Shown one piece after another: positions 16,249 through 19,372 of a stretch of DNA of 64,000 bases. Position numbers and translations under genes: made by a program. Origin of the DNA: Calothrix sp. PCC 7716 (lineage in GTDB: Bacteria > Cyanobacteriota > Cyanobacteriia > Cyanobacteriales > Nostocaceae); NCBI RefSeq assembly GCF_019977735.1, contig NZ_AP025018.1:868001-932000 (forward strand). The letters run 5' to 3'. The first letter of the stretch is position 1; the number at the start of each line of letters is the position of its first letter. The notes under the pieces were generated by a model, which saw only the letters and a list, made by a program, of their open reading frames with translations, was not told the DNA's origin and made no database searches.

Positions 16249-16870
16249 AATATTATACTACCGCATCACGATACTATCGACAAGCATTAGTATACCCGAA
16301 TGAGCGACAAGCTCTGAATTTATTAAAGAGCTTTATCTAGATGTGTAACTTTAAATAAGGTGCATAGAGACGGTAGAGGTGATGATTAAAGCATGGAGTA
16401 ACAGTAAAAATATCCTTTTAAAGGTTTTGCTCCAATAAAGCCTTAATCTCTTTTATTGTTAATGATTTTCTCAAAAAGCTTTGCTGACGTGCCTGCCGAA
16501 AACCTGGTAAACCACAACCCCAGTAGCTAGTTAATAAATCATCAGCGTTTGAATATTGTTTGATTAAAGAGGTTTCAGCCCATACAATTAAGTCAATACA
16601 TTTTGAACGGGAGCAATGCGATTTTGTTAAATCAGCCGACACTAAATGCGATTACTATTTTTCATACTTAGAAAGAAAGCTATATTTATTACAATTATTT
16701 TTCAATTTGCACACCAAGTTTATCCTTTTGATGAGAACAAAAAGATTGACAGCAAATAGTTTTAAATTTGTTTAAGTAAATTAACTACATACGTAGCTAA
16801 ATTTTAATGTATATTTTCTCACTCAAACCGCTTTCAAAATATACATTAGGTATAAAATTTATCCACCATA
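16249..16870. other. Gap with one doubtful short frame and an AT-rich hairpin
   Basis: A 74-codon minus-strand frame (16418-16642) encodes NADDLLTSYWGCGLPGFRQARQQ, which I cannot assign. It may be a remnant. At 16806-16850 the arms TAATGTATATTTT and AAAATATACATTA form an inverted repeat near the transposase 3' end and may be a terminator or an IS end. Confidence 0.4.
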
Positions 16871-17039
16871 TTAAGGATTGATAAAAGAGGTGAAAATTGA
16901 ATTGCAGAAAGAATCCCAATTTCCAGCTATCCATTGGCAACGGAGATGTAACATAATTTCTGCATTATTTTTTAACCAAAATTTACTATTTCCTTTAATT
17001 CTTAAATTTACAACCTGTCGAATTAAACTTTCAATCGCT

Positions 17040-17094
17040 CCCTTCGGGTTCGCCAGTTTGGCGGGACGGAAGCCGACACCGCCAAGTGGACTCA
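17040..17094 (-). repeat. 55-bp insertion element, copy A
   Basis: On the minus strand it starts TGAGTCCACTTGGCGG and ends CGAACCCGAAGGG. It sits after ATCGGTAGTGG, before AGCGATTGAAAG, inside the E motif (IGSG|AIES) of the transposase. No target duplication longer than GG is visible. Arms CCACTTGGCGG and CCGCCAAACTGG form a hairpin with one mismatch. Confidence 0.9.
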
Positions 17095-17445
17095 CCACTA
17101 CCGATTGGTAGTTTTTTCTCTATAATTTCAGGATAATTTAAACGACCTTCACGGTACGCGCGTAGTAAATAATCTCTCTGTTTTATCATAGTATTATATC
17201 GCTCTCCAGAAGCTTCATTAATAAATTTATTCATCTTTTTTATTAGCGGCAATGCACCACGTTTTTTTAAAGTTTTTCGTGCGTTTTTAAACCAATCTTT
17301 TCGCTCATTTTCTTTTGTGAAAGCCGCATCTGCAAATAGTTGTAAGTGTTCTGTAACGTGATAAAAATCATATAATTGATAAGTTTCATTTGGACATCCT
17401 AAACGCTCTAAAAGCGGAGGAATATGTAACCATATCCACTCAGCG

Positions 17446-17500
17446 CCCTTCGGGTTCGCCAGTTTGGCGGGACGGAAGCCGACACCGCCAACTGGTCTCA
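17446..17500 (-). repeat. 55-bp insertion element, copy B
   Basis: On the minus strand it runs from TGAGACCAGTTGGCGG to CGAACCCGAAGGG. It follows GCGGACGG and precedes CGCTGAGTGG, splitting the second acidic motif (IADG|AEWIW). The stem is CCAGTTGGCGG with CCGCCAAACTGG. Confidence 0.9.
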
Positions 17501-17764
17501 CCGTCCGCAATTAATAAAACTTGCTTTGCTTGGTTAATTCCTAAACTGACTAAATACATTTCCAAAATTTCTAAAAATGGTTTATGTCCATGATATGTAC
17601 CATCATTAGTAATAGGAATTTCATTGTTTTTTATTTTTTTACCTTGCTCATCAACAACATAAATTGTTAATAATTTTGGCTCTACCCATATTCCATCAAA
17701 GCCATATCGGTTTGTTTTTTCATTTTTTTCATCTGATTTGTTAATTCTTATTTTACTTCTGCCT

Positions 17765-17819
17765 CCCTTCGGGTTCGCCAGTTCAGCGGGACGGAAGCCG
17801 ACACCGCTGACTGGACTCA
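17765..17819 (-). repeat. 55-bp insertion element, copy C
   Basis: On the minus strand it runs from TGAGTCCAGTCAGCGG to CGAACCCGAAGGG. It follows GTAGACGG and precedes AGGCAGAAG, splitting the first acidic motif (IAVDG|GRSK). The stem CCAGTCAGCGG with CCGCTGAACTGG differs from copy B on both sides in a way that keeps the pairing. Confidence 0.9.
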
Positions 17820-18512
17820 CCGTCTACAGCAATTACAACACGTTGTCCTTGAAAAGTATTTCCAGGTTTTAAATTATTATTTTTTATACTCTCTATTTTT
17901 GATTGTCGCAAGTTGATTCCTATTTGACCAAATTTATATGCAAGTCGTTCAATTCTTTTTTGGCTTATGTTGATGCCCCAATCTATTAAAGTTGTACATG
18001 CTGCTTCAAATGAACTAGCAATTGCACCACCTCCACGCAATTATTGACCAGGCTAAAGGAGTTACACCTTCTTCCATTCCCAACCATTTTAAAAATGGGC
18101 TGAAGCCCTGATGCTCAAATTTATTTTTTTCTTTTTTCCCATTATTCAATTTTTCACTTTTATCATTCCTTATTGTTACATAAGGCAATAATAAAGTTAT
18201 TAAAACATTTCCAACTGTTAATATTTGTCTTCGACGACAACCATGTTTTCTTGTTTTTAACTCCCAATACCCCTGAGTTTGAATCATTGCTGTATCTAAA
18301 GCTTCCTGAGATTGAGACAAATTATGTAATAATATTGCGACACATTGCCCAGCTAGTATCAGCGCTATGTCTCTAATTTCTTGTTCACGAGCTTTAAAAA
18401 TCCGACCGTCCCATTCTTTAACATTATTCAATTCTAAAAGTTTCGTAACCGAATCTTTAAAATCTTGCAAGGATTTGCTTAAATCTAAAGTTGGATATAT
18501 ATATTTTGTCAC

Positions 18513-18883
18513 GGTAGGCGCATCCGAGTTATTAAACTATTGGTACTCGGTAATCCTACCTTTTTTTATGAACACTTTTAATAAAGCATGGTCGCTTCCA
18601 TCATATACGCTTACAATTATCGCAAATAGTGCGCTTATAATTTTTGATTCTAACGGCGCCCGTGCGCTCGGCATGGCTGCGCTATGCCATCACTTTTTAG
18701 TGTGTTTTTAGTATTTATATATTGTTTTGTATATTCATTCAATTTAGTTTATTTGCTTATTAGTAATGTAGTAATATAGTTAAATAATTTATATTGAATG
18801 TTTTTTAAGTATTAATACTGCTAATAGTGTATTAGATAAAAGTTTGTACTGAGAAGTTTTTTTTGTATGCACCTACTTTTAAG
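18513..18883. other. Gap with hairpin and dispersed palindromic repeat
   Basis: GGTAGG (18513-18518) and CCGAGT (18524-18529) pair with ACTCGG (18545-18550) and CCTACC (18555-18560), followed by seven T. This is a terminator-like hairpin on the plus strand, directly upstream of the transposase start. At 18655-18688 a palindromic repeat starts GGCGCCCGTG and contains GGCATGGCTGCGCTATGCC. The same repeat type flanks the ISAs1-like element at 45901-45945 and 47345-47379. The rest (18720-18883) is AT-rich with no feature seen. Confidence 0.6.
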
Positions 18884-19372
18884 CTAATTTAACAAAATCG
18901 CATTGCTCCCCTCTGCTATATGTAAAATCAAGTCAGTCAAATTACGGTAACGAAGCGAATAGTCTCTACATTCCAAATCTAGCATTCTTACAGGATTATC
19001 ATTAAAATTATCACAGACAACACAAAGATGAACGCTACAGTTACACCAAAGCTGAAAAATAGGAAAGCTTTTCTCAAAAAAATATGCTGACTCGCGTTGG
19101 CTATAATGTATTTCTCCTAGCCACTCATAATAAGCTGCAATTGCAGCGTTTATTGGTAATAAGTCATAGTTCTCAAAAGCAAATCGGTCAACACAGCCGT
19201 TATGCCACTCATACAACTGATAAACCTCCTGTGGCAAGTTAAATGGTAAGTCCTTAACTTTTTCATTAATTTCGTAGTGCAGAAGTCCCGGTCTTAATTC
19301 TAAAGCTCTATCAGGCATATTTATTTTTAGCCATGCCTCAATTCGCTTCAAACCTTCAATTAGTTTTGACAT
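18884..19372 (-). CDS. SMI1/KNR4 (SUKH) family protein
   Basis: The 162-residue protein has the SUKH core: a helical start (LIEGLKRIEAWLKINMP), then FNLPQEVYQLYEWHNGC (about 45-61), FENYDLLPINAAI, and FPIFQ near 104-108. SUKH proteins are mostly immunity proteins against bacterial nuclease toxins, or general binding scaffolds. The gene starts 16 bases after the hicA stop and reads in the same direction, giving a three-gene order hicB-hicA-SUKH. No toxin of the classical polymorphic type is adjacent. Intact length. Confidence 0.85.
   Translation of the reverse strand: MSKLIEGLKRIEAWLKINMPDRALELRPGLLHYEINEKVKDLPFNLPQEVYQLYEWHNGCVDRFAFENYDLLPINAAIAAYYEWLGEIHYSQRESAYFFEKSFPIFQLWCNCSVHLCVVCDNFNDNPVRMLDLECRDYSLRYRNLTDLILHIAEGSNAILLN

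What the first reader, a model, noticed from the sequence alone, without database searches (positions are those of the whole stretch)
17040..17819. One 55-bp element inserted three times, each at a catalytic motif of the same transposase
Three copies (17040-17094, 17446-17500, 17765-17819), all 55 bp and in the same orientation, interrupt the ISKra4-like transposase gene. Removing each rejoins VDG|GRSK, ADG|AEWIW and GSG|AIES without residue loss. These are what look like the D, D and E catalytic motifs. All follow GG, and no target duplication beyond GG is visible. Chance insertion in three catalytic motifs of one gene is unlikely unless the element recognises a sequence these motifs share (targets GACGG, GACGG, AGTGG). 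The element may be a homing, non-autonomous repeat that disarms transposases, or may be removed from RNA. This is my best candidate for an undescribed system.
Basis: partly seen in the sequence, partly recalled or inferred. Interest (0 to 1): 0.85.

Follow-up and report, generated by a model that had tools for sequence, protein, structure and literature searches.

The report
Tiny mobile hairpin interrupting transposase motifs
A 55-base hairpin-forming mobile DNA repeat of filamentous cyanobacteria has inserted three times into one jumping-gene enzyme, each time at a catalytic motif, largely because the codons of those motifs spell the short sequence the repeat prefers to insert into.

Summary
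Three 55-bp copies, in the sense of the gene, follow GG exactly at VDG|G, ADG|A and GSG|A of an ISKra4/ISLre2-like transposase; relatives show these as the D, D and E motifs. The genome holds two identical copies of this interrupted IS and no intact one. The element is a structured, mobile repeat (44 places here; matches in 22 of 41 genomes; strong covariation) that inserts after [ACT]GG, often with G two bases on, without duplication beyond GG. Of eight copies met in or beside such transposases, seven sit at D1, D2 or E. A target matrix trained without these genes explains much of this, since DGG/DGA/SGA codons read YGGNG; the unexplained residue is 1e-5 to 3e-4 for six insertions, but only 0.001 to 0.01 without the three that prompted the question. 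General removal from RNA is not supported: 27 of 27 copies in other long reading frames have lengths divisible by three, against 36 of 94 elsewhere, so they look translated. Most likely an undescribed family of small intragenic palindromic elements, akin to Rickettsia RPEs, REPs and perhaps Nostoc SDRs, that breaks transposases incidentally. The mobilising enzyme was not found.

The parts
17765..17819 (-). 55-bp element copy at the first catalytic Asp motif (VDG|GRS); target GACGG|AGG
17446..17500 (-). 55-bp element copy at the second catalytic Asp motif (ADG|AEW); target GACGG|CGC
17040..17094 (-). 55-bp element copy at the catalytic Glu motif (GSG|AIES); target AGTGG|AGC
16609..18910 (-). 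whole insertion sequence, 2302 bp, with 28-bp terminal inverted repeats (16609-16636 and 18883-18910); identical second copy in the genome at C1:5293688-5295989
16871..18512 (-). interrupted ISKra4/ISLre2-like (Mutator-type) DDE transposase gene, approximate extent
18030..18036 (-). short patch (7 bases where the G004 relatives have 6), a fourth, +1 frameshifting lesion

Best explanation
The 55-bp unit is a non-autonomous mobile palindromic element of filamentous cyanobacteria. It inserts precisely after [ACT]GG, preferring YGGNG, and leaves no duplication beyond the GG. Shown by sequence comparison: structure, spread, target preference, precise insertion, and the presence in long non-transposase reading frames only of copies whose length is a multiple of three. 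Inferred: it is moved in trans by an unidentified enzyme acting on a GG-bounded unit (a serine recombinase of IS607 type or a single-strand HUH transposase would fit). The transposase gene was hit at D1, D2 and E mainly because the codons for DGG, DGA and SGA read YGGNG, among its few good targets; frame-breaking 55-bp copies persist there because the gene is dispensable to the host. The interrupted IS was then copied in trans by an intact relative that is gone from this genome.
For: Own genome: 44 places. Covariation: 8 of 17 pairs change on both sides in 12 sequences, 0 of 500 shuffles reach the score (the structure was drawn by me from these sequences). Nested copies at GGCGG|TGTCGG. A copy in an own-genome gene is cleanly absent in 6 of 6 congeners; D1 and D2 are empty in 3 of 3 G004 relatives. 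A target matrix from 96 sites outside these transposases ranks the own catalytic sites 1, 6 and 12 of 91 GG candidates, G002 D1 1 of 73, G006 D2 2 of 66; the own gene has 10 YGGNG sites, 3 of them catalytic. Lengths divisible by three: 27 of 27 in long frames not recognised as transposases against 36 of 94 elsewhere, Fisher 7.5e-10; 21 of 21 after merging copies I judged related, 4.0e-8; without my gene labels 30 of 37 against 36 of 94, 1.3e-5. Trans-mobilisation has a parallel in G002: two identical interrupted ISKra4-like copies and an 87% identical copy with a 492-codon open frame and the same terminal repeats.
Against: The target matrix does not explain everything: six insertions all at catalytic motifs has probability 1.2e-5 (narrow matrix) to 2.6e-4 (wide), against 1.5e-9 for uniform choice among GG sites; leaving out the own three, the same weights multiply to about 0.0015 and 0.011 for the other three. 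With the narrow matrix G006 D2 ranks only 27 of 66 and Nostoc D2 8 of 91. The covariance model includes the leading GG, so its hits lean towards GG; 12% of 118 sites have A in place of the first G, and sites not starting with GG were dropped from the matrix. No mobilising enzyme was found, and G021 has 45 elements but no IS607 match. No intact helper transposase was found in the own genome, and neither own IS copy has a visible target duplication. Three of the ten transposase or nuclease labels rest on my reading (L122, L126, L245).
Confidence: 0.75

Rival explanations
1. The element homes into catalytic-motif codons of Mutator-type transposases beyond what local sequence predicts, for instance because it reads longer features of those motifs, so that it acts as a parasite or silencer of these ISs.
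For: Seven of the eight copies met in or beside such genes lie at D1, D2 or E, all seven in sense, in three genera and with different element sequences; the target matrix leaves 1e-5 to 3e-4 unexplained for six of them; three of 41 copies fall within 800 bp in 1 of 20000 uniform simulations.
Against: Most analysed copies are elsewhere; transposases or nucleases of other kinds are hit away from their motifs (L122, L126, L179, L230, L245, positions by eye). Without the own three the residue is only about 0.0015 to 0.011 (weights). The matrix rests on 96 sites and may understate the true preference. Insertions are not expected to be uniform over a genome.
Confidence: 0.15
2. In transposases the 55-base unit is removed from RNA or bypassed by the ribosome (take-off and landing on Gly codons), so the gene stays functional.
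For: Each insertion is at a Gly codon with exact rejoining; interrupted ISs exist in identical pairs in two genomes, in the own genome without an intact copy.
Against: Copies in long non-transposase frames keep the frame (27 of 27), which removal or bypass would not need; G006 carries an in-frame 54-bp copy at D2; the own gene also has a separate +1 lesion; take-off and landing Gly codons differ (GGT against GGA or GGC, my reading); G002 has a helper candidate with matching ends.
Confidence: 0.06
3. Coincidence: random insertions into a dead IS.
For: Transposase copies are dispensable and four lesions exist.
Against: Uniform choice among GG sites gives 8e-6 for the three sites and 1.5e-9 for six insertions in four genes.
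Confidence: 0.04

Closest known systems
Rickettsia palindromic elements (RPE) and intragenic GTAG/CGTC REPs
   Same: small palindromic repeats found in frame inside protein genes (passages of PMC10969869, PMC3733652 and PMC2229807)
   Different: different sequence and host; here a GG-bounded unit with an [ACT]GG target, no GTAG or CGTC tag in the main forms, and frame-breaking copies at transposase catalytic motifs
Small dispersed repeats (SDR) of Nostoc, Elhai et al. 2008
   Same: from recall: 21-27 bp cyanobacterial mobile repeats with compensatory stem changes and nested insertions
   Different: the paper is not held, so identity or overlap with SDR cores could not be tested; 122 of 131 units here are 54-57 bp
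IS607-family serine recombinase elements
   Same: insertion at GG with no target duplication and GG at the ends (passages of PMC6188088)
   Different: IS607 prefers (G)GG while G before GG is nearly absent here (1 of 96); 19 IS607 loci gave one element match, more than 1 kb from the gene (L345); G021 has elements but no IS607 match
Programmed bypass elements (T4 gene 60, yeast mitochondrial byps)
   Same: recalled: short inserts at Gly codons with a hairpin (one search gave a search listing only)
   Different: copies in other long frames keep frame; Gly take-off and landing codons do not match

Membership tests
ISKra4/ISLre2 Mutator-type transposase (p-MULT) | conserved D, D, E motifs | tested here: met
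   family description PMC3942029 (passages)
ISKra4/ISLre2 Mutator-type transposase (p-MULT) | curated profile score | tested here: inconclusive
   homologue L051: ISKra4 116 bits of 205, ISLre2 31 of 200; the window's five pieces gave no Pfam family; public label of L051 is ISLre2
ISKra4/ISLre2 Mutator-type transposase (p-MULT) | 8- or 9-bp target duplication | tested here: inconclusive
   9 bp at two of three G004 copies, none visible at either own copy
RPE/REP-like intragenic palindromic element | palindromic structure supported by compensatory change | tested here: met
RPE/REP-like intragenic palindromic element | in-frame copies in protein genes | tested here: met
RPE/REP-like intragenic palindromic element | GTAG or CGTC tag (REP superfamilies) | tested here: not met
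   ends are (GG)TGAG and CCCGAAGGG in the main forms
REP with RAYT | association with a Y1 transposase gene | tested here: inconclusive
   29 Y1 loci scanned, only part of the matches: five weak or partial model matches, one exact 3' end word in L288
IS607-mobilised unit | GG target and GG ends without duplication | tested here: met
IS607-mobilised unit | present wherever the element is | tested here: not met
   G021: 45 elements, no match; G022: IS607 but no element
Nostoc SDR | SDR consensus sequences | not testable with these tools
   paper not held
Self-splicing or bypassed insert | no length constraint in genes | tested here: not met
   27 of 27 copies in long non-transposase frames divisible by three
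Known RNA family | Rfam match | tested here: not met
   window 16500-19000: two hits at E 6.6 and 8, neither on an element

The most novel reading that the evidence does not exclude
A family of tiny structured elements that repeatedly targets the catalytic-motif codons of Mutator-type transposases across genera, more than its short [ACT]GG preference predicts, so that conserved enzyme motifs serve as its homing sites, and it spreads on and silences the ISs it rides.
Probability: 0.15. Interest if true: 0.85.

Novelty: new variant of a known kind. Interest (0 to 1): 0.55.

Why it matters
It shows how a very short target word can make an element land again and again in the active site of one enzyme class, because the genetic code fixes that word in the motif. 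It also gives a countable test (length modulo three) of whether small inserts are translated, and a large set of sites for finding the unknown mobilising enzyme of very small bacterial elements.

Tried and rejected
RNA removal or bypass: not supported as a general property (frame rule). Rfam and a search of held papers for six element oligomers: nothing. Plasmids gave two records with the element at E up to 1e-3, phages none. Y1 and IS607 genes as donors: no clear link, only part of the matches looked at. Excess of +1 lesions in these transposases (short patches; inserts of 49, 55, 178 and 271 bp, the last two worked out by eye): noticed, not tested formally.

Choices and dropped rows: one search failed and was rerun with edge cases handled. 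One search lists only its best matches; I analysed 132 places from it and, largely of the own genus. One duplicate was dropped (131 left). For the target matrix I dropped near-identical flanks, the five sites in Mutator-type transposases and sites not beginning with GG (96 left). In-gene means a joined stop-free stretch of at least 180 codons with 50 on each side, my thresholds. The merging of related copies to 21 was by eye. G044 E is left out of the chance products because only a fragment was at hand, and the Nostoc gene was scored from pieces. L155 (G044 E) is a weak model match (22.5 bits); its ends and the GSG|AVES joint were read by eye. L127 lies in debris beyond a broken transposase and is the eighth, non-motif case.

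Full report
What is there. They lie in the sense of a transposase gene on the minus strand, inside a 2302-bp insertion sequence with 28-bp terminal inverted repeats. An intact homologue aligns up to VDG, ADG and GSG and resumes directly after each copy. D, D and E are the same in all seven proteins aligned (six homologues and an ISKra4-like protein), and the family paper places the catalytic triad by alignment (PMC3942029, passages). The homologue scores best with the ISKra4 model, under the cut-off, though its public label is ISLre2. A fourth lesion, a short patch of +1, lies at 18030-18036.

The insertion sequence. The genome (12.37 Mb, 10 contigs) has two identical copies of the whole interrupted unit, and no intact one was found. 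Three relatives in G004 are uninterrupted at D1 and D2, and one of them also at E; two of the three have 9-bp target duplications, while neither own copy has one. These relatives are frame-broken by other lesions. In G002 a different, ISKra4-like IS is interrupted at D1 and exists as two identical copies, one with a visible 8-bp duplication (flanks), beside an 87% identical copy with a 492-codon open frame and the same terminal repeats. Copying in trans is therefore a sufficient explanation there, and is inferred for the window.

The element. A covariance model from 12 copies finds 44 places in the own genome (41 events if the duplicated IS counts once) and matches in 22 of 41 genomes: the own and 21 of 24 others of its family, none of 16 outside it (stricter filters). 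Eight of 17 pairs change on both sides and no shuffle of 500 reaches the covariation score. Of 131 units 122 are 54 to 57 bp. Copies nest inside copies. A copy in an own-genome gene (L113) is cleanly absent in 6 of 6 congeners, so the element is mobile. The mobiliser is unknown: loci of Y1 (29) and IS607 (19) genes, part of those found, showed no clear link; the nearest things were an exact 3' end word near one Y1 gene (L288) and a full element more than 1 kb from one IS607 gene (L345).

Is it removed? I joined flanks at 131 distinct places and asked for a stop-free stretch of at least 180 codons, 50 on each side; 37 of 131 pass. In the 27 not labelled transposase or nuclease every insert is a multiple of three, against 36 of 94 elsewhere (Fisher 7.5e-10). 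Pfam was run on pieces of 23 of these 27; 11 of 23 reach a curated cut-off, among them DciA, a PEP-utilising enzyme, FtsK/SpoIIIE and a family 38 mannosidase. The label transposase or nuclease rests for seven of ten (L230 under the cut-off) and on my reading for L122, L126 and L245; without labels the contrast is 30 of 37 against 36 of 94 (1.3e-5). Seven of those ten carry 55 bp, three of them in the window's gene. A unit removed from RNA or skipped by ribosomes would not need to keep frame, so general removal is not supported; removal only in transposases is not excluded.

Why catalytic motifs? Four more copies were met in Mutator-type transposases: G002 D1, G006 D2 (54 bp, in frame), Nostoc sp. 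UHCC 0302 D2 and G044 E (weak model match, read by eye). A scan of 47 loci (46 picked for such genes, and L127, where one search put a transposase piece near an element) gave five hits: the two G002 copies, G006, G044, and L127, whose element lies in debris beyond a broken gene. Not all transposase matches were fetched. So seven of the eight met lie at catalytic motifs. Targets of 96 sites outside these genes show [ACT] before GG (G in 1 of 96) and G two bases after in 46 of 96. DGG, DGA and SGA read YGGNG whenever the first residue's codon ends in C or T, as Asp codons always do. The own gene has 91 GG candidates but only 10 YGGNG, three of them catalytic. A blind matrix ranks the own sites 1, 6 and 12 of 91, G002 D1 1 of 73 and G006 D2 2 of 66; a narrower one gives 3, 4 and 12 of 91, 1 of 73, 27 of 66, and 8 of 91 for Nostoc. 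For six insertions the chance rises from 1.5e-9 (uniform) to 1.2e-5 or 2.6e-4. The own three prompted the question; without them the same weights give about 0.0015 and 0.011. Sequence preference thus explains much of the coincidence and leaves a residue. Three of 41 copies within 800 bp are themselves rare under uniform placement (1 of 20000).

Comparison with known kinds. Intragenic, in-frame palindromic repeats are known as RPEs and intragenic REPs (passages of PMC3733652, PMC2229807 and PMC10969869). Very small nested cyanobacterial repeats (SDRs) are known from Elhai et al. 2008, which I recall but could not read. The GG target without duplication resembles IS607 (passages of PMC6188088). 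No held paper contains any of six element oligomers, and the listings of three topic searches showed none that I recognised as this family; subscription papers are not covered. I therefore call it a new variant of a known kind, with the repeated hits on catalytic motifs as the unusual part.

Noticed in passing
window 18030-18036; L249, L250, L251: Short GC-rich patches of net +1 (for example 6 bases replaced by 7) occur in these transposase copies: codon about 150 in the window's gene, about 14 and 292 in the three G004 copies, and 428 in L250 and L251, just after GSG of the catalytic Glu motif.
   Followed up: partly
L122, L140 (G004): Two diverged copies of an IS4-like transposase (name by eye) carry an identical element at the same site; L122 also has a 49-bp insert of a second palindromic family right after what looks like its first Asp motif.
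   Followed up: partly
L105, L143, L180, L190: An in-frame 54-bp copy, in antisense, sits at the same place of a gene that Pfam calls DciA (hit in L105) in four genomes of the genus, apparently inherited.
   Followed up: no
L203, L228, L245: Some copies have GGTCAACC...GGTTGACC ends in place of GGTGA...GAACC, extending the terminal stem by matching changes on both sides.
   Followed up: no
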